Shown piece by piece: positions 21,017 through 31,281 of a stretch of DNA of 64,000 bases. Both the position numbers and the translations under genes were made by a program. Source of the DNA: Pseudofrankia coriaricola (GTDB taxonomy: Bacteria > Actinomycetota > Actinomycetes > Frankiales > Frankiaceae); assembly GCF_001854805.1 (NCBI RefSeq), contig NZ_MBLO01000274.1, positions 1 to 64,000 of the forward strand, given 5' to 3'. Below the pieces are notes generated by a model. That model made no database searches. It had not been told where the DNA came from and saw nothing but the letters and a program-made list of their open reading frames with translations. Position 1 is the first letter of the stretch. Each line of letters begins with the position of its first letter.

Positions 21017-23647
21017 ATGACAACGCACGAGCCGGTGTCGCGCGCCACCGCGGCGGACCTGCCGGGGCAGCGAGCCGTCCCTGACGACGCCGAGGCCGTC
21101 GGCGCCGCGACCGGCCCGACTGCCGCGGCCGGCACGTTTGGCACGTCCAAGAGCGTCCCTGCCGCGGTGGGCGCGGCAGGGACCATCGCCGTGGCCGCTC
21201 CGCCCGCGCCGGCTGGTCCGCGCGAGCCGGTCGGCCAGCCGGGAGCCGCGGACCTGGCCGGTCTGGCAGGGCCGTACGGCGGCCCGGCGGACGGCGGCCC
21301 GGGAGACGGCGGCCCGGGAGACGGCGGCCCGGGAGACGGCGGCCCGGGATGGCGCGGGCGGCTCGCGCGGGTGGCCAGGGGACCGGCGGACGACCCGCGG
21401 TGGGCCCGACCGGCGTTGCTCGTGCTGCTGGCGGCGACGGCGGTGCTCTACCTGTGGGGGCTGGGCCGGTCCGGGTGGGCGAACGCCTTCTACTCGGCGG
21501 CGGCCCAGGCCGGCGGGCAGAGCTGGAAGGCGCTCTTCTACGGGTCCTCGGACGCCGGTAACTCGATCACCGTCGACAAGCCGCCGGTCGCGATGTGGCT
21601 GATGAGCCTGTCGGTGCGGATCTTCGGCCTGAGCTCGTGGAGCATTCTGGTGCCGGAGGCGCTGTGCGGCGTCGCCTCCGTCGGGCTGCTGTACGCGACC
21701 GTCCGGCGGGCCTTCAGCCCGGCCGCCGGCCTGATCGCCGGGCTCGTCCTCGCGACGACGCCGGTGGCCGTGCTGATGTTCCGGTTCAACAACCCGGACG
21801 CACTGCTGGTGCTGCTGCTCATCGGCGCGGCGTACGCGACGCTGCGGGCCGTCGAACGGGCGAGCGCGCGCTGGCTCGCGCTCGCCGGCGTGCTGGTCGG
21901 GTTCGGCTTCCTGACCAAGATGCTGCAGGCATTCCTGATCGTGCCGGTGCTCGCGGTGGTGTACCTGGTCGCGGCGCCGACGGGGATCGGCCGGCGGGTG
22001 CGTGACGTACTGCTCTCCGGCCTCGCGCTGGTCGCGTCGGCCGGCTGGTACATCGCCGTCGTGGAGCTCGTCCCAGCCTCCGCCCGCCCGTACATCGGCG
22101 GCTCCCAGCACAACAGCATCCTGGAGCTCACCCTCGGCTACAACGGCTTCGGCCGGCTGACCGGCGACGAGACAGGCAGCGTGGGCGGTGGCCCCGGCGG
22201 CGGGGGTGGCGGCGCCGGGGCCGCGGCCGGACGGGTGTTCGGGCCGCCGACGGCCGGCGGCGGCTGGGGCCAGACCGGCTGGGGCCGGATGTTCAACACC
22301 GAGATCGGCGGCCAGGTCGCCTGGCTGCTGCCGGCCGCGCTCGCGCTGCTCGTCGCCGGTCTGTGGGTGACGTCGCGGGTCATGCCGTTCTGGTCGGGCG
22401 GCGCGGAGCCCGCCCGCCGGCAGCTCTGGGCAACTCCGTCGCCGATGCCGTCCGCGGCCGACCATGAGCCGCCGGGCCAGCCGTCCTGGGCGCCTTCCGC
22501 GACGCACTCAGCAACCGGCCAGGAGCCGGTCCGCCAGCCGCGATGGACTCCGCGCACCGACCGGGCGCGCGCGGCGTTCCTGGTGTGGGGCGGCTGGCTG
22601 CTGGTGACGGGCATCGTGTTCAGCGAGATGCAGGGGATCTTCCATCCTTACTACACGGTCGCGCTGGCCCCGGCGATCGGCGCGCTGGTCGGCATGGGGT
22701 CGGTCGCGCTCTGGGAGCGTCGCGAGCACCCGGCGGCCGCCGTCACGCTCGCCGCTGTCACGGCCCTCACGGCGTGGTGGTGCGCCCATCTGCTCGACCG
22801 TACCGCCGGCTGGCACGAGTGGCTGCGCCCCGCCGTGCTCGTGGTGGGGCTCGCGGGCGCGGTACTGCTCCTGGGCGTGTCCCGGCTGCCGGCCCGCGCG
22901 GGCCTCGCCGTCGCGGGCCTGGCTCTGGCCGGCTGCCTGCTCGGCCCGACCAGCTATGCCCTGGCGACCGCGGACTCGCCGCATACGGGAGCGCTCCCGA
23001 GCGCGGGCCCGTCGGCCGGTGGGGGCAACGCCCGTCCCGCCGCCGGCGGCTTCCCCGGTGGCCAGGGCCGACTAGGCCAGGGCCAGGGACAGGGGCAGCA
23101 GGGCCAGGGCGGCTTCCCGTGGCAGGGCGGAACGATGCCCGGTGGCGGACTCGGCCGTGGTTTCGGCGGTGGGACGCCCAGCCTCCCCGGCGGCCAGGGC
23201 GGTACTGGTGGTCAGGGTGGCGGCATGGGCGGCCTGCTCGGCGCGACGGACCCGGGCGCGGACCTGGTGGCGTTGCTGAGGCAGAACAGCTCCGCGTACA
23301 CCTGGGCCGCGGCCGCCGTCGGCTCGAACAATGCCGCCGGGTACCAGCTGGCGGCCGACGAGCCGGTCATGGCGATCGGCGGCTTCAACGGCACCGACCC
23401 GTCGCCCACACTCGCGCAGTTCCAGAAGTACGTCGCCGAAGGAAAGATTCACTACTTCATCGGTGGCGGGCTTTCCGGCCGCGGAAACGGCGGTAGTCAG
23501 CAGGCTTCCGCGATCACCGCCTGGGTCCAGGAGAATTTCACGCCCACCACGGTCGGCGGCGTCAGCATCTACGACCTGACCGCCGTCGCCGGTGAGGCAA
23601 CGGACAACGGTGATGGTGCGGTCAACGGTGGAACGACAGTGACCTGA
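21017..23647 (+). CDS. GT39-family membrane glycosyltransferase
   Basis: Polytopic dolichyl/polyprenyl-phosphate-dependent glycosyltransferase (ArnT/PMT-like), 876 residues. It probably moves a sugar from a lipid carrier to an envelope acceptor on the outer face. The N-terminal 115 residues are low complexity, including GDGGP repeats (four 15-base repeats, 21301-21345). The catalytic region has VDKPPVAMWLMSLSVRIFGLSSW with the conserved acidic residue of the first outer loop, followed by about ten membrane segments. After the last comes a Gly/Gln-rich linker and a soluble C-terminal domain (about 750-876: SSAYTWAAAAVGSNNAAGYQL to VGGVSIYDLT), as in actinobacterial YycA-like proteins. ATG 21017 has only a weak ribosome site. 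Acceptor unknown. Confidence 0.9.
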   Translation: MTTHEPVSRATAADLPGQRAVPDDAEAVGAATGPTAAAGTFGTSKSVPAAVGAAGTIAVAAPPAPAGPREPVGQPGAADLAGLAGPYGGPADGGPGDGGPGDGGPGDGGPGWRGRLARVARGPADDPRWARPALLVLLAATAVLYLWGLGRSGWANAFYSAAAQAGGQSWKALFYGSSDAGNSITVDKPPVAMWLMSLSVRIFGLSSWSILVPEALCGVASVGLLYATVRRAFSPAAGLIAGLVLATTPVAVLMFRFNNPDALLVLLLIGAAYATLRAVERASARWLALAGVLVGFGFLTKMLQAFLIVPVLAVVYLVAAPTGIGRRVRDVLLSGLALVASAGWYIAVVELVPASARPYIGGSQHNSILELTLGYNGFGRLTGDETGSVGGGPGGGGGGAGAAAGRVFGPPTAGGGWGQTGWGRMFNTEIGGQVAWLLPAALALLVAGLWVTSRVMPFWSGGAEPARRQLWATPSPMPSAADHEPPGQPSWAPSATHSATGQEPVRQPRWTPRTDRARAAFLVWGGWLLVTGIVFSEMQGIFHPYYTVALAPAIGALVGMGSVALWERREHPAAAVTLAAVTALTAWWCAHLLDRTAGWHEWLRPAVLVVGLAGAVLLLGVSRLPARAGLAVAGLALAGCLLGPTSYALATADSPHTGALPSAGPSAGGGNARPAAGGFPGGQGRLGQGQGQGQQGQGGFPWQGGTMPGGGLGRGFGGGTPSLPGGQGGTGGQGGGMGGLLGATDPGADLVALLRQNSSAYTWAAAAVGSNNAAGYQLAADEPVMAIGGFNGTDPSPTLAQFQKYVAEGKIHYFIGGGLSGRGNGGSQQASAITAWVQENFTPTTVGGVSIYDLTAVAGEATDNGDGAVNGGTTVT

Positions 23648-23793: not shown

Positions 23794-26700
23794 TCAGGGT
23801 TGGATGGTGGCGAGGAGGTCGCCGACTTCGACGGAGTCGCCGGTCGTGTGGGTGAGTTCGGTGATGGTGCCGGCCACCGGGCTGGTGACGGCGGCTTCCA
23901 TTTTCATGGCCTCGATGACGGCGAGGCGGTCGCCCTTTTCGATGGTGTCGCCGGCCTTGACGGTGTAGGTGACGATGCCGGGCAGGCCGGCGCCGATGTG
24001 GCCGGGGTTGTTCGGGTCGGCGCGGCGGGCGGCGGCGGAGACCGAGGTGATCGACTCGTCGCGGACTCGGACCGGTCGGGGCTGGCCGTTGACGCGCAGG
24101 TACAGGGTGCGGATCCCGGCGCGGTCCGGTTCGCCGATCGTCTCCAGCTCGACGATGATCTCGACACCCGGTTCCAGGAAGACGCTGGCGGGCTCGCCGG
24201 GTAGCAGGCCGTAGAGGAAGGCCTCGGTTGGGATGACGGAGCTGTCGCCGTAGAGTTCGACGGCTTTGGTGTAGTCGCGCCACGGGCCGGGGAACAGCAG
24301 CCGCGACAGCGCGGCCCGGCGGTCCTGGCCGGCAAGCGCGGCTTGGTCATCGGGGGCGAGGTCGACCGCGGGCGGGGCGGGGCGACGGCCGGCGAGGGCG
24401 CGCTCGCGGAAGGGCTCGGCGAAGCCGGCGGGTGGGGTGCCGAGCTCACCGGCCAGGTAGCCCAGCACGCTCGCGGGCAGGTCGAACTTCTCCGGTTCGG
24501 TGCGCAGGGTCTTCGGGTCGATGTTGCCGCCGGCGATGAACAGGGCGAGGTCGCCGACGACCTTGCTCGTCGGGGTGACCTTGATGGGTTTGCCGAGGAG
24601 CTCGTTCGCGATCGCGTAGCACTCGGTCACCTCCGACCAGCGGTCACCGAGGCCGAGGGAGATGGCCTGTTGGCGCAGGTTCGTCAGCTGGCCGCCGGGG
24701 ATCTCATGGCGATACACAGCCCCCGTCGGTGCCCGCAGACCGGCCTCGAACGGCGCGTACAGGTCGCGGACCGCCTCCCAGTAGGCCTCCAGCGCCGAGA
24801 GCGCCGCGAGCGGGATGCCAGTGGCCCGCGGGGTGTGGTCGGTCGCGGCGACCAGCGCGGACATGTTCGGTTGGCTGGTGCCGCCCGACATCGGCGCCGC
24901 CGCCGCATCCACCGCGTCGACGCCGGCGTTCGCCGCGGCGAGCAGGGTCGCGAGCTGGCCGCCGGCGGTGTCGTGGGTGTGCAGGTGGACCGGCACGTCG
25001 AAGCGTTCCCGCAGCGCCGTGACCAGCCGGGTCGCGGCCGGGGGGCGCAGCAGACCGGCCATATCCTTGATCGCGAGCACGTGCACGCCAGCACCGACGA
25101 GCTGCTCGGCGAGGCGCAGGTAGTAGTCGAGGGTGTAGATCCGCTCGCCCGGGTCGGTGAGGTCGCCGGTGTAGCACAGGGTGCCCTCGGCGATCGCCGC
25201 CGTGTCCTGGACGACGGCGTCGATGGCGGGGCGCATCTGCTCGATGTCGTTGAGCGCGTCGAAGATGCGGAACAGGTCGATCCCGGTCGCCGCGGCTTCC
25301 TGGACGAACGTCTGGACCATCTCGTCGGGGTAGGGGGTGTAGCCGACGGCATTACGGCCGCGTAGCAGCATCTGCAGGCAGATGTTCGGCGCGGCCTCGC
25401 GCAGCGCGGCGAGCCGGTCCCACGGGTCCTCGGACAGGAACCGCAACGCCACGTCGTAGGTCGCCCCGCCCCAGCACTCCAGACTGAGCAGGTTCGGGGT
25501 GAGGCGGGCGAACGCCGGGGCGGCGGCCAGGATGTCGAAGCTGCGCAGCCGGGTCGCCAGCAGCGACTGGTGGGCGTCACGCAACGTCGTGTCCGTCACC
25601 GCGAGTGTCGTCCGCGCCCGCAGCCGGGACGCCCACCCGGCGGGGCCGACCTCGGCGAGCAGCTGACGCGACCCCGCCACCAGCCCATCCGGCCCGTCGG
25701 ACTCGCCCGGCCCGTCAGCCGCCTCCAGCGCGGGTAGCAGCCGGCGCGGGTCGGTGAACGCCGCGCCGGCCGGCCGCTTGTGGCCGTTGACCGTCGCGTG
25801 CGCGAGACGGGCCAGCATCCGGCTGGTCTTGTCGGTGCCACCGTCACCGGCCAAAAGCCACGGCCGCTCGTCGATGAAGGACGTCGTCACCCCACCGGCC
25901 AGGAACGCCTCGTCGGCGAGCAGCCGGGACAGGAACTCGATGTTGGTCCGTACCCCGCGGATCCGGAACTCCCGCAACGCCCGGCGCGCCCGCCGCGACG
26001 CCTTCTCCACCGTGCCGCCCCGACACGTCAGTTTCACCAGCAACGAGTCGAAATACGGGCTGACCTCGGCGCCGGAGTAGGTCGCACCATCCAGGCGCAC
26101 CCCCGGACCGCCCGGCGACTGGTAGTAGGAGATCCGACCGGTGTCCGGACGGAAGTCCTGCGCCGGATCCTCCGTCGTCACCCGGCACTGGATCGCCGCG
26201 CCGCGGATCGTGACCGCCTCCTGGGGCAGGTTCAGATCCGCCAACGTGTCTCCCGCGGCGATCCGCAGCTGCGCACCCACCAGATCCACACCGGTGACCT
26301 CCTCGGTCACCGTGTGCTCGACCTGGATCCGCGGGTTCATCTCCATGAACGTGTACCGGCCATCCGCCCCGACCAGGAACTCCACCGTCCCCGCGTTCAC
26401 ATAGCCCACATGCCGGGCGAACCGCACCGCCGCGTCGCACAACCCGTCGCGCACCGCCGGATCCAGCCGCGGCGCCGGCGCGATCTCCACGACCTTCTGA
26501 TGACGGCGCTGCACCGAACAGTCCCGCTCAAACAGATGGATCACCGCCCCGGTCGCATCCCCGAGGACCTGCACCTCGATGTGACGCGGACGGTCCACCG
26601 CCTGCTCCAGGAACACCGTCCCGTCACCGAACGCCGCCGCCGCTTCCCGCACCGCCGAGCCCACCGCATCCGCCAGGTCCGCCGCCCGCGCCACCCGCCG

Positions 26701-27201
26701 CAGACCCCGCCCACCACCACCCGCCGACGCCTTCACGAACAGCGGGAAACCAACCTCCTCCGCCGCCGCCAGCGCACCAGTCCCATCCGGCAGCGGCACC
26801 GACGCCCGCAACACCGGCAACCCCGCCGTGATCGCCGCGTTCCGCGCCGCGACCTTGTCCCCCGTCAGCCGCAGCACCGCCGGCGGCGGCCCGACGAACG
26901 TGATCCCCGCCGTCGCGCACGCCTCCGCGAGCGCCGCGGATTCCGACAGAAACCCATACCCTGGATGCAGCGCATCCGCCTCCGCGTGCTTCGCGACCCG
27001 CAGCAACTCGTCGATGTCCAGGTAGCCCCGCACCGGATGCCCGGGCTCGCCCAGCTCGTACGCCTCGTCGGCCTTCGTCCGATGCAGCGACGAAACATCC
27101 TCGGGCGTGTACACCGCGACCGTCCGCAAACCCAGCTCATGGGCCGCACGAGACACCCGTACCGCGATCTCACTGCGATTGGCGACCAGGACCTTGTGCA
27201 C
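23794..27201 (-). CDS. pyc: Pyruvate carboxylase
   Basis: Biotin enzyme converting pyruvate, bicarbonate and ATP to oxaloacetate (anaplerosis). All three parts are present in 1135 residues: biotin carboxylase (about 1-445; KVLVANRSEIAVRV, ALHPGYGFLSE, EMNPRIQVEHTVTEEVTG), carboxyltransferase (about 535-800; VTDTTLRDAHQSLLATRLR, CYTGDLTDP, IKDMAGLLRP, HTHDTAGGQ) and a biotinyl domain with K1100 in VIEAMKMEAAV. Length matches the single-chain enzyme. The start is GTG with AGGAG five bases upstream. The gene is convergent with GT39 and transcribed alone; the 320 bases upstream (27202-27521) show no gene. Confidence 0.97.
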   Translation of the reverse strand: MHKVLVANRSEIAVRVSRAAHELGLRTVAVYTPEDVSSLHRTKADEAYELGEPGHPVRGYLDIDELLRVAKHAEADALHPGYGFLSESAALAEACATAGITFVGPPPAVLRLTGDKVAARNAAITAGLPVLRASVPLPDGTGALAAAEEVGFPLFVKASAGGGGRGLRRVARAADLADAVGSAVREAAAAFGDGTVFLEQAVDRPRHIEVQVLGDATGAVIHLFERDCSVQRRHQKVVEIAPAPRLDPAVRDGLCDAAVRFARHVGYVNAGTVEFLVGADGRYTFMEMNPRIQVEHTVTEEVTGVDLVGAQLRIAAGDTLADLNLPQEAVTIRGAAIQCRVTTEDPAQDFRPDTGRISYYQSPGGPGVRLDGATYSGAEVSPYFDSLLVKLTCRGGTVEKASRRARRALREFRIRGVRTNIEFLSRLLADEAFLAGGVTTSFIDERPWLLAGDGGTDKTSRMLARLAHATVNGHKRPAGAAFTDPRRLLPALEAADGPGESDGPDGLVAGSRQLLAEVGPAGWASRLRARTTLAVTDTTLRDAHQSLLATRLRSFDILAAAPAFARLTPNLLSLECWGGATYDVALRFLSEDPWDRLAALREAAPNICLQMLLRGRNAVGYTPYPDEMVQTFVQEAAATGIDLFRIFDALNDIEQMRPAIDAVVQDTAAIAEGTLCYTGDLTDPGERIYTLDYYLRLAEQLVGAGVHVLAIKDMAGLLRPPAATRLVTALRERFDVPVHLHTHDTAGGQLATLLAAANAGVDAVDAAAAPMSGGTSQPNMSALVAATDHTPRATGIPLAALSALEAYWEAVRDLYAPFEAGLRAPTGAVYRHEIPGGQLTNLRQQAISLGLGDRWSEVTECYAIANELLGKPIKVTPTSKVVGDLALFIAGGNIDPKTLRTEPEKFDLPASVLGYLAGELGTPPAGFAEPFRERALAGRRPAPPAVDLAPDDQAALAGQDRRAALSRLLFPGPWRDYTKAVELYGDSSVIPTEAFLYGLLPGEPASVFLEPGVEIIVELETIGEPDRAGIRTLYLRVNGQPRPVRVRDESITSVSAAARRADPNNPGHIGAGLPGIVTYTVKAGDTIEKGDRLAVIEAMKMEAAVTSPVAGTITELTHTTGDSVEVGDLLATIQP

Positions 27202-27521: not shown

Positions 27522-27591
27522 CTAGAGGGCCAAAGGGCGTGCGAAAATGATCTTCCTTCGCACGCCCGGCGGCCGTTGCCCCCAGGATCAC
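27522..27591. repeat. 70-bp palindromic element, family 1 (copy B)
   Basis: Perfect 11-bp hairpin GGGCGTGCGAA (27535-27545) / TTCGCACGCCC (27557-27567), loop AATGATCTTCC, flanked by CTAGAGGGCCAAA and CCCCCAGGATCACTA. Its right end supplies the TAG stop (27591-27593) of the Hsp70/WD40 gene. Relative to copies C-E, two stem pairs are changed on both sides. Confidence 0.9.
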
Positions 27592-29951
27592 TAACGGGTG
27601 TAGATGATCTCCCAGAGGCGGGCCGTGGCGTCTGTGCTCGTCGTCGCGAGCAGCAGGCCGAACGGGGCGAACGCGCAGCTCATGACGGTGCCGCTGTGAC
27701 CGGACAGCGTCGCGACCTCGACCCCGGTGCTGACGTCCCACAGGCGGGCGACGTCGTCGGTGCTCGCGGTCGCGAGCAGCTGGCCGTCGGGGGAGAACGC
27801 GCAGCTCTGCGCCGAACCGCCGAGCGTCATCGTCGTCGTGCCGGTCGGGACGTCGGTCACCCGGGTGCCGTCGTTGCTGGTGGTGGCCAGCAGCAGGCCG
27901 TCGGGCGAGAACGCGCACCCGTTCGCGAAGTTCGTGTGCCCGGGCACCTTCATGATGCTCTCGCCGAGCGCGACGTCCCACAGGAAGATTGCCTCGGCGC
28001 CGGCCGAGACCAGCAGCCGCCCGTCGGGCGAGAACGCGCAGCCGTAGATCGAGCCGCGGTGGTCGCCGGTGAGGGAGGCGATCTGCTTGCCGGTCGAGAC
28101 ACCCCACAGCTTGACGGTCCGGTCGGTGCTGGTGGTGGCCAGCAGGGTGCCGTCGGGGGAGAACGCGACGCCGTAGACGGGGCCCTTGTGGCCGGAGAAC
28201 GCCGCCGTCTCGGCCCTGGTCGCGACGTCGAAGATCCGGATCGTCTTGTCGCTGCCGGTGATGGCGATCAGCTTGCCGTCCGGGGAGAACGCGCAGCTGT
28301 TCGGGATCGAGCTCTTGCGGCCGGGAACGGCCAGCTCGTCCACCGACCGTCCGGTGTTCACGTCCCAGAGCTGGATGCCGTCCTTGCTGGTGGTGGCCAG
28401 CAGCCGGCCGTCGGGAGAGAACCCGCAGCTTGTCACGTCGCGCTCGTGGCCGGTCAGGGTTGCCCGCAAGCTGACCTCGACGAGGTGCGCCGGCCGGTGC
28501 GAGCGCTCGATCGTCGCGCCGCCGCGCAGGTCGGCGCCACCGCCACCGTTGCCGCGCGACTGGCCGAGCGGTATGGGCGAGGTCGGCAGGGTGGTGGCGA
28601 TCCAGTCATGCTCGGTGATGGACGTGCCCGGCCTGGCGTGCGTGTGCAGCAGGCTGCCGGAGGCCTCCGCGGCCAGGTCGAACAGCGAGCCGTCGGTCAG
28701 GCGCACCCGGGCGAGCACGGTGCCCGCCTCGAACCGTGCGCCGGGCTCGGCGAGCCAGCGGACCATCGTCGCGGTGCCGCCGGGGATCTCCCAGCGGGCC
28801 GGCTGGACGACCGGGCTGGGCCTGGCCGCGACCGTGCGCCGGGTGGAGACCGAGGCGGCCCAGGCCGCCGCGCCGCGCACGACCGCGAGTTCCGGCTCCA
28901 ACGGGACGAACAGCTCCTGGGGCGGCCAGTCGGTGGCGACGCCCAGCTTCCCGGACAGGATGTCCGCGACCACCGGCATCCGCGAGCCGCCGCCGACGAG
29001 CAGCACCCCGCCCAACTTCTCCGCCGGGACGTCGGCGGCGTCGAGCAGGTGCTGGCAGCAGGCCATCGTGCGGGCCAGCGTCGGCGAGGCGAGCTGGACG
29101 AAGCGCTCACGGTCGATGCCGACGAGCAGCCCGGCGGGGCCGAACACGTCCTCGACCATCGGCACGTCGGTGAGCTGGTGCTTGAGCTGGCGGGCAAAAT
29201 CGATCAGCTCGTGGCGGGTGCGCCGCGCGGCGGTCTGGAACACCTCGCCCGGGCCCGTCGGGTTGAGCAGCGGCTCGAGGCTCGGGCCGTGGATGCCGAG
29301 GATCTCGTCGAAGAGCAGCTGGTCGAGGTCGCGTCCGCCGCAGTCGTAGAGCGAGGAGTGGCCGATCACCTCGTGCCGGCCGGACGAGCCGACCGCGATC
29401 AGCGCCGCGTCGAATGTGCCGCCGCCGAGGTCGTAGACGAGCATCAGGTCGCCGGGGTGCGGGCGGCCCGCGCCGAGCGGCGCCCATGCGGCCGCGACCG
29501 GCTCGGCGAGCAGGTCGACGTCGACGAAACCGGCGGCCTCGGCCGCGCCGATCATGAGTCGGCGCAGCGGGCCGGCGGGGTCGTACACCGCGGGGATGGT
29601 GACGACGGCGCGCGGCAGCGCCCCGCCGAGCTGGGCCTCCGCCTCGGACTTCAGCGCGGCCATCGTCGCGGTGACCAGCCTGGCCGGCGGGTAGGTCCGC
29701 CCGTCGAGCACCACCGGGGCCTCACGGCGCAGGTCCCGTTTGACCTCGCCGCGGTATGCCGCGGGCCAGATCCGCTTGCGACGCTCGGCGAGCGTGCCGA
29801 CGATCAGGTTCTCGCCGTCCGCGAACACCGACGAGGGCCAGGACACCGCTCCGCTGGCGGACTCCCTGACCAGCTCGACCTGACCGTCGACCACGTATGC
29901 CGCGGACGCTCGGAAGGTGCCGTAGTCGATCGCGAGGATCGGCTCACCCAC
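27591..29951 (-). CDS. Hsp70-type ATPase / biotinyl-lipoyl-like / WD40 fusion protein
   Basis: 786-residue cytoplasmic protein with three parts. Residues 5-372 form an Hsp70/actin-like ATPase: phosphate-1 AIDYGTFRASAAYV, connect-1 AEPVAAAWA, phosphate-2 LVYDLGGGTFDAALI, and adenosine motif GGVLLVGGGSRMPVVADIL. The Hsp70 peptide-binding domain is missing. Residues about 386-455 instead look like a biotinyl/lipoyl-type barrel (GGTATMVRWLAEPGARFEAG, ASGSLLHTHARPGTSITEHD) without a lysine in the modified position. Residues 496-786 contain seven WD40 repeats, each with FSPDG-LLATTS-type blades. GTG 29951 is chosen for the GGAGG just upstream and because the reading begins directly at the ATPase fold. 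Such proteins are probably scaffolds or signalling ATPases; no partner gene is adjacent. Confidence 0.9.
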   Translation of the reverse strand: MGEPILAIDYGTFRASAAYVVDGQVELVRESASGAVSWPSSVFADGENLIVGTLAERRKRIWPAAYRGEVKRDLRREAPVVLDGRTYPPARLVTATMAALKSEAEAQLGGALPRAVVTIPAVYDPAGPLRRLMIGAAEAAGFVDVDLLAEPVAAAWAPLGAGRPHPGDLMLVYDLGGGTFDAALIAVGSSGRHEVIGHSSLYDCGGRDLDQLLFDEILGIHGPSLEPLLNPTGPGEVFQTAARRTRHELIDFARQLKHQLTDVPMVEDVFGPAGLLVGIDRERFVQLASPTLARTMACCQHLLDAADVPAEKLGGVLLVGGGSRMPVVADILSGKLGVATDWPPQELFVPLEPELAVVRGAAAWAASVSTRRTVAARPSPVVQPARWEIPGGTATMVRWLAEPGARFEAGTVLARVRLTDGSLFDLAAEASGSLLHTHARPGTSITEHDWIATTLPTSPIPLGQSRGNGGGGADLRGGATIERSHRPAHLVEVSLRATLTGHERDVTSCGFSPDGRLLATTSKDGIQLWDVNTGRSVDELAVPGRKSSIPNSCAFSPDGKLIAITGSDKTIRIFDVATRAETAAFSGHKGPVYGVAFSPDGTLLATTSTDRTVKLWGVSTGKQIASLTGDHRGSIYGCAFSPDGRLLVSAGAEAIFLWDVALGESIMKVPGHTNFANGCAFSPDGLLLATTSNDGTRVTDVPTGTTTMTLGGSAQSCAFSPDGQLLATASTDDVARLWDVSTGVEVATLSGHSGTVMSCAFAPFGLLLATTSTDATARLWEIIYTR

Positions 29952-30908: not shown

Positions 30909-31032
30909 CACCAGGACACCCAGACCCCCAGACCCCAGAGTGCCAGTGCCGAACGGTTGATCGGCTCAGACGCCGGTGGGTGAAGGCGCTGGCGGGAAGG
31001 TTGGTGGATGGGCGAGCGGGTACGTCCGCGGT

Positions 31033-31281
31033 ATGAGCCACCGCCCAGACGGCATCCCTGGCCGCGAGCTGTCCGACGCGGCTCTGGTTCGCGAAGTGCG
31101 TCAACTGCACCGAACCCGACATGCGACGTTCCTCGAAGGTAGTGAGGACGCATTCGAGACGCACACCCGGCGGATGATGGAGCTGGAGCGCGAGTACCTG
31201 CGCCGCTTCCCGGACGCCGTCAGCCCTGACCCGCGCCGCACCCGTGCGGGCCGCCGCCGCGCGGCGGGCCTTCCCGCGTAG
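31033..31281 (+). CDS. DUF6158 family protein
   Basis: Small cytoplasmic protein of 82 residues, unknown function, found widely in actinobacteria. Sequence core: IPGRELSDAALVREVRQLHRTRHATFLEG, then EAHTRRMMELEREYLRRFPD, ending with an Arg-rich tail. It is predicted mostly helical. I start at ATG 31033, since the longer reading from 30976 adds a Gly-rich segment not typical of the family. Its TAG stop directly abuts a family-1 repeat element (31282). Confidence 0.8.
   Translation: MSHRPDGIPGRELSDAALVREVRQLHRTRHATFLEGSEDAFETHTRRMMELEREYLRRFPDAVSPDPRRTRAGRRRAAGLPA

What the first reader, a model, noticed from the sequence alone, without database searches (positions are those of the whole stretch)
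27591..29951. Hsp70 ATPase joined to a biotinyl-like barrel and a seven-blade WD40 propeller
Seen: complete Hsp70 nucleotide-binding motifs (1-372), no peptide-binding domain, a segment with the Gly and turn pattern of biotinyl/lipoyl domains (386-455) lacking a modifiable Lys, then seven WD40 repeats. Known: Hsp70s act through their substrate domain, and WD40 domains bind proteins. Inference: the propeller replaces the substrate domain, giving an ATP-switched scaffold. I know of no described system with this exact order.
Basis: partly seen in the sequence, partly recalled or inferred. Interest (0 to 1): 0.75.

Follow-up and report, generated by a model that had tools for sequence, protein, structure and literature searches.

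The report
Hsp70 ATPase fused to WD40 propeller
A real, intact gene shared by the Frankia-type soil and root-nodule bacteria makes a protein that joins the ATP-burning half of the Hsp70 chaperone to an inactive vitamin-carrier barrel and a seven-blade binding propeller; it is probably an ATP-controlled binding platform rather than a classic chaperone, and nobody has yet tested what it does.

Summary
The minus-strand gene 27591-29951 encodes 786 aa: a complete Hsp70 nucleotide-binding domain (1-372), a barrel of the biotinyl/lipoyl type without a modifiable lysine (387-457), a variable linker, and a seven-bladed WD40 propeller (495-786). It is not a chance fusion. Full-length orthologues (69-98% identical) sit once per genome in 27 of 27 Pseudofrankia, Frankia and Parafrankia genomes, and all three domains are under purifying selection. 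None was found in 8 other Frankiaceae genomes, in about 360 further Actinomycetes, or in a pattern scan of 84,980 species genomes. ATPase residues are invariant, but the substrate-binding domain and Hsp70 linker are missing and the J-protein arginine is replaced by an invariant aspartate. 'No described system with this order' holds for the exact order, but the theme is not unique: Hsp70 ATPase domains without a substrate domain are fused to other beta-propellers in other Actinomycetes, including one WD40 case. Verdict: a new, lineage-specific variant of the SBD-less Hsp70 class, function untested.

The parts
27591..29951 (-). Whole gene, 786 aa, GTG start at 29951, stop at 27593-27591
   Evidence: open frame; GTG start conserved in all 19 aligned orthologues
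28836..29951 (-). Hsp70-type nucleotide-binding domain, residues 1-372; invariant D9, K71, E150, D174, T179 and the G320-G321 adenosine motif
   Evidence: Pfam HSP70 E 5.4e-31; DnaK 2v7y E 7e-39; invariant columns
28581..28793 (-). Degenerate biotinyl/lipoyl-type barrel, residues 387-457, no modifiable lysine
   Evidence: hhalign E 5e-8 with shuffle control; AlphaFold model pLDDT 78 and fold match to lipoyl/biotinyl domains; lysine absent
28470..28580 (-). Variable-length flexible linker, residues 458-494
   Evidence: 22% invariant columns against 52-55% in the domains; pLDDT mostly under 50
27594..28469 (-). Seven-bladed WD40 propeller, residues 495-786; blade motifs at residues 511, 555, 597, 640, 681, 719, 761
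   Evidence: Pfam WD40 E 3.5e-61, 7 stretches; fold Z 45 to 7-bladed WD40 structures; motifs
30976..31281 (+). DUF6158 gene (true start probably near 31045), divergently oriented neighbour; the only neighbour seen beside this gene in all three genera
   Evidence: Pfam DUF6158 E 8.5e-27; synteny; also present without the fusion gene in related genera, so not an obligate partner
23794..27201 (-). Pyruvate carboxylase, downstream neighbour; adjacency only in Pseudofrankia
   Evidence: Pfam; present beside the gene in L038-L041 only, not in Frankia or Parafrankia

Best explanation
A soluble, single-copy, lineage-specific protein that works as an ATP-gated binding platform. The Hsp70-type domain binds and slowly hydrolyses ATP (inferred from invariant catalytic residues). 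The dead lipoyl-type barrel sits where the Hsp70 substrate-binding beta domain would start and acts as a structural coupler or docking surface, not as a cofactor carrier (fold shown; role inferred). The WD40 propeller binds one conserved partner through its top face, and the ATP/ADP state changes grip or access (inferred). Shown here: domains, missing parts, conservation, distribution. Inferred: the switch, the partner and the coupling. It most likely does not run a normal DnaJ/GrpE chaperone cycle.
For: ATPase residues D9, K71, E150, D174, T179 and the P120/R130-R131 switch positions are invariant in 19 orthologues. No SBD: the Pfam match ends at position 376 of 599. No LLLDV-type linker follows the domain. 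DnaK's J-domain arginine (E. coli R167) aligns with D146, invariant. Purifying selection in all three domains, dN/dS 0.06-0.24. The barrel is as conserved as the ATPase, while the linker after it is not. Propeller top-face loops differ between blades yet are conserved between orthologues (mean entropy 0.34 and 0.46, against 0.73 for bottom C-D loops), which suggests a fixed partner. Retained in small-genome members (5.4 Mb G010, 4.9 Mb G020).
Against: No biochemistry, expression record or partner is known. No conserved operon names a pathway: neighbours differ between genera. The whole-protein model has low confidence in the ATPase domain (pLDDT under 50 over much of 1-386), so no domain contacts could be read from it. 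ATPase residues can persist in proteins that only bind nucleotide.
Confidence: 0.5

Rival explanations
1. A specialised chaperone: the propeller is the client-binding part, and ATP cycling with a dedicated co-chaperone folds or assembles one client.
For: Intact Hsp70 ATPase site; conserved top face of the propeller suggests one client.
Against: No SBD, no linker, J-domain arginine replaced by invariant Asp; no DnaJ or GrpE gene among the conserved neighbours.
Confidence: 0.17
2. A regulator or assembly factor of lipoyl- or biotin-dependent enzymes (2-oxoacid dehydrogenases, pyruvate carboxylase), with the dead lipoyl barrel as a decoy or docking module.
For: The barrel is closest to lipoyl/biotinyl domains, by profile, by weak matches in other genomes and by fold; in Pseudofrankia the gene lies just upstream of pyruvate carboxylase on the same strand.
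Against: The pyruvate carboxylase neighbour is absent in Frankia and Parafrankia loci; no lipoyl enzyme gene is a conserved neighbour; such barrels are often purely structural (HlyD is among the fold matches).
Confidence: 0.12
3. A component of an anti-phage or conflict system, like the NTPase/propeller/HSP70 systems described for multicellular bacteria (PMC7159879).
For: Conflict systems in Actinobacteria do use SBD-less Hsp70, and related ones use beta-propellers (PMC7159879); the genome's nearest other WD40 propeller is in a protein that looks TIR-like.
Against: Single copy, same architecture in 27 of 27 genomes with no variable blades; no GTPase, tubulin, GrpE or effector neighbours; PADLOC gives only a generic propeller hit.
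Confidence: 0.11
4. A chance fusion or sequencing/assembly artefact without function.
For: Only that the architecture is unusual.
Against: 27 of 27 full-length orthologues in three genera, dN/dS 0.06-0.24 in all domains.
Confidence: 0.01

Closest known systems
SBD-less Hsp70 family proteins (NBD-only class, CDD cd10170), e.g. those surveyed in Myxococcus xanthus (PMC8265645)
   Same: Hsp70 ATPase domain with no canonical substrate-binding domain; common in bacteria with complex life cycles
   Different: This one carries a dead lipoyl-type barrel and a WD40 propeller and is a single-copy core gene of three genera
NBD-WD40 protein L166 (another actinomycete, G124)
   Same: SBD-less Hsp70 domain followed by WD40 repeats, 687 aa
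   Different: No room for a lipoyl-type barrel (short proline-rich stretch between the domains); sporadic, found in 1 of 61 genomes of its order; NBD about 32% identical; the tree joins them only weakly (SH-aLRT 84, long branches)
NBD-linker-propeller proteins L153 (PQQ/BamB) and L154 (Vgb/YNCE) of other actinomycetes
   Same: SBD-less Hsp70 domain plus a beta-propeller
   Different: Other propeller families, reached through a long low-complexity stretch with a hydrophobic, probably membrane-spanning segment; no lipoyl-type barrel reported by Pfam
PkwA-type Ser/Thr kinase-WD40 proteins of actinomycetes (5yzv, PMC6113231)
   Same: Very similar 7-bladed WD40 domain (Z 45, 41% identity) on an ATP-using N-terminal domain
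   Different: Protein kinase instead of Hsp70 ATPase
DnaK/Hsp70
   Same: ATPase domain and its catalytic residues
   Different: No SBD, lid or linker; J-domain contact lost

Membership tests
Canonical DnaK/Hsp70 chaperone | Hsp70 nucleotide-binding domain with catalytic residues | tested here: met
   HSP70 E 5.4e-31; DnaK 2v7y E 7e-39; D9, K71, E150, D174, T179 invariant
Canonical DnaK/Hsp70 chaperone | Peptide-binding domain and lid | tested here: not met
   Pfam match stops at profile position 376 of 599; lipoyl-type barrel and propeller follow instead
Canonical DnaK/Hsp70 chaperone | Hydrophobic interdomain linker (DVLLLDV type) | tested here: not met
   the stretch AAWAASVSTRRTVAARPSPVVQPARWEIPGG follows the ATPase domain and is conserved without such a motif
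Canonical DnaK/Hsp70 chaperone | J-domain contact arginine (E. coli DnaK R167) | tested here: not met
   aligned with D146, invariant in 19 orthologues; role of R167 is from established knowledge
Canonical DnaK/Hsp70 chaperone | ATPase stimulated by J-protein and client | not testable with these tools
   needs purified protein
SBD-less Hsp70 family (NBD-only class, cd10170) | Hsp70 NBD without substrate-binding domain | tested here: met
   the CDD model itself was not available here
Biotinyl/lipoyl domain | Barrel fold and family profile | tested here: met
   hhalign E 5e-8 with controls; Foldseek and VIA-align matches; below Pfam's own cut-off
Biotinyl/lipoyl domain | Lysine that carries biotin or lipoate | tested here: not met
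   absent at the site in all 19 orthologues
WD40 propeller | Seven GH/WD repeats forming a 7-bladed propeller | tested here: met
   seven Pfam stretches; fold Z 45, rmsd 1.2 over 280 residues
NTP-dependent conflict systems (PMC7159879) | Linked GTPase/tubulin/MoxR-vWA and variable effector genes | tested here: not met
   no such conserved neighbours within the flanks read
NTP-dependent conflict systems (PMC7159879) | Patchy distribution and rapid diversification | tested here: not met
   27 of 27 genomes of three genera, uniform architecture

The most novel reading that the evidence does not exclude
An Hsp70-derived ATP switch in which the substrate-binding domain has been replaced by a pseudo-lipoyl coupler and a WD40 propeller, so that the Hsp70 allosteric cycle gates a fixed protein partner instead of exposed peptides; a core assembly or signalling factor of the Frankia lineage.
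Probability: 0.35. Interest if true: 0.65.

Novelty: new variant of a known kind. Interest (0 to 1): 0.45.

Why it matters
Hsp70 is usually thought to work only through its peptide-binding half. A conserved natural protein in which that half is swapped for a propeller would be a clean test of whether the Hsp70 ATPase can drive another output. It would also show what the many bacterial Hsp70 ATPase domains without a substrate domain are for. In the Frankia lineage it marks an uncharacterised core gene that is present both in root-nodule symbionts and in relatives described as non-nodulating (the latter from general knowledge), so it probably belongs to general cell biology rather than to nodulation.

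Tried and rejected
Antisense 931-aa ORF on the plus strand: rejected as a GC artefact. Recent origin of the barrel from the adjacent pyruvate carboxylase biotinyl domain: the adjacency is only in Pseudofrankia while the barrel is in all three genera, so rejected as an explanation of its conservation. DUF6158 as an obligate partner: rejected, since DUF6158 is also in genomes without the fusion. Empty-site test in the related genus: around its DUF6158 gene tblastn at E up to 10 listed no remnant of the fusion, but gain and loss cannot be told apart without the genus tree. Defence library: only a generic propeller hit in PADLOC. Plasmids: no record covers 80% of the protein. Literature on Frankia proteomes and transcriptomes was searched; no passage could be tied to this gene, and I did not establish its locus tag in F. 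alni. The AlphaFold model of the ATPase domain was poor, probably because the alignment is shallow; sequence evidence was used instead.

Full report
What is there. The finding lies on the minus strand: 29951 to 27591 is one open frame of 786 codons. Pfam sees an Hsp70 ATPase domain and seven WD40 stretches; the ATPase domain aligns over residues 4-362 with a solved DnaK. The long plus-strand ORF over the same bases is a GC artefact: the minus frame has third-position GC 0.96, the antisense frame has its GC peak at the first position. The start is sound: all 19 aligned orthologues start with GTG at the same residue.

The middle part. Pfam alone gives only a sub-threshold hit. A profile of 19 orthologues against biotinyl/lipoyl domains of the same genome and the neighbouring pyruvate carboxylase gives 94.8% probability and E 5e-8 over 61 columns; the best of 30 column shuffles reached 5.8% and the reversed profile 0.2%. 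An AlphaFold model of the segment alone (pLDDT 78) matches lipoyl and biotinyl domains with Foldseek and VIA-align (Z up to 11.9, rmsd 1.7 over 77 residues). The lysine that would carry the cofactor is missing in every orthologue. So it is a true but degenerate member of the barrel family, and it cannot work as a lipoate or biotin carrier.

The propeller. Seven blade motifs and a model with high confidence in this part that matches 7-bladed WD40 structures at Z 45. Positions on the top face differ from blade to blade but are kept among orthologues (B-C loops 0.34 and D-A loops 0.46 bits mean entropy against 0.73 for C-D loops on the bottom). This is what a fixed binding partner would give; it is suggestive only, since no unrelated WD40 family was run as a control and some B-C positions are structural.

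Distribution. A search with the middle segment found it once in each of 8 genomes of the window's genus and in 27 of 35 genomes of the order, all of them in three genera; tblastn shows that all 27 are full length with 69-98% identity. Contig names identify the genera as Pseudofrankia, Frankia and Parafrankia. Searches of 394 and 297 genomes of the class, overlapping sets that include the Frankiaceae, found no further orthologue: other matches are DnaK-level ATPase domains at about 30-38% or weak lipoyl-domain matches. A pattern scan of 84,980 species genomes returned 18 loci from this group and one WD40-only locus. So the exact three-part order is, as far as searched, private to these three genera, where it is a single-copy core gene.

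Selection. dN/dS is 0.06-0.24 for the ATPase, barrel and propeller parts separately. Column conservation is about equal in the three domains and falls only in the linker 458-494. All three parts are therefore maintained together.

Neighbours. In Pseudofrankia the gene is followed by pyruvate carboxylase; in Frankia it lies downstream of a two-component kinase/regulator pair; in Parafrankia it is followed by a mechanosensitive channel gene. Only a divergently oriented DUF6158 gene is shared by the three genera, and that gene also exists without the fusion in the related genera. There is no conserved operon, so neighbours do not name the pathway.

How it most likely works. Invariant D9, K71, E150, D174, T179 and the P120/R130-131 positions argue for a working ATPase (roles from established Hsp70 knowledge). 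Missing SBD, missing LLLDV linker and an invariant Asp in place of the J-domain contact Arg argue against a normal DnaJ-driven cycle. I commit to an ATP-gated binding platform, at 0.5; the gating itself is inference.

Compared with what is known. SBD-less Hsp70s are a recognised, abundant and little-studied class: 3,477 cd10170 genes in 5,551 prokaryotic genomes (PMC8265645). Among those read here in Actinomycetes, the ATPase domain is followed by quite different parts: WD40 (L166), PQQ propeller (L153), Vgb/YNCE propeller (L154), ricin-type lectin (L162), and substrate-binding-protein-like domains by eye (L094, L108, L113). L166 is the nearest in layout but lacks the barrel and is sporadic (1 of 61 genomes of its order). 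A tree of ATPase domains puts the window family next to L166 and the ATPase-only L117, apart from DnaK and from the other fusions, but with weak support (84) and long branches. No paper found describes this protein; in the passages read, the systematic survey of prokaryotic WD40 proteins mentions Hsp70 only through DnaJ-domain neighbours (PMC5587647).

Verdict. Observation confirmed; interpretation partly supported; new variant of a known kind. The interest comes from a conserved natural swap of the Hsp70 output domain; it is limited by the lack of any functional clue and by the recurrence of the theme.

Noticed in passing
L165:1534-4152 (Pseudofrankia genome G002): A DnaK-type Hsp70 (ATPase and substrate domain) fused to a C-terminal TIR domain (Pfam TIR_2 E 3.9e-32), 873 aa.
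   Followed up: no
L162:1384-3744 (Frankia genome G008, size of F. alni ACN14a): SBD-less Hsp70 ATPase domain, linker, and ricin-type beta-trefoil lectin domain, 787 aa.
   Followed up: partly
L166:1301-3361 and upstream ORF 13-1287: A second, sporadic Hsp70 ATPase-WD40 fusion, directly downstream of an ORF that looks by eye like the C-terminal part of a dynamin-like protein.
   Followed up: partly
L094, L108, L113 (Frankiaceae genomes): SBD-less Hsp70 ATPase domains with a membrane-spanning segment and a C-terminal part that looks like a phosphate-type substrate-binding protein (by eye).
   Followed up: no
L119:895-2514 (own genome, C125): The propeller's closest paralogue in the genome (44-47% identity) sits in a protein whose N-terminus looks like a TIR domain (by eye, not run through Pfam).
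   Followed up: no
L117:2057-3211 (own genome, C220): A stand-alone Hsp70 ATPase domain of 384 aa with nothing fused to it; in the tree it falls beside the window family, but on a long branch.
   Followed up: partly
window 21017-23647 +: YkcB-like mannosyltransferase (PMT_2 plus YkcB_C) with a Gly/Gln-rich stretch.
   Followed up: no
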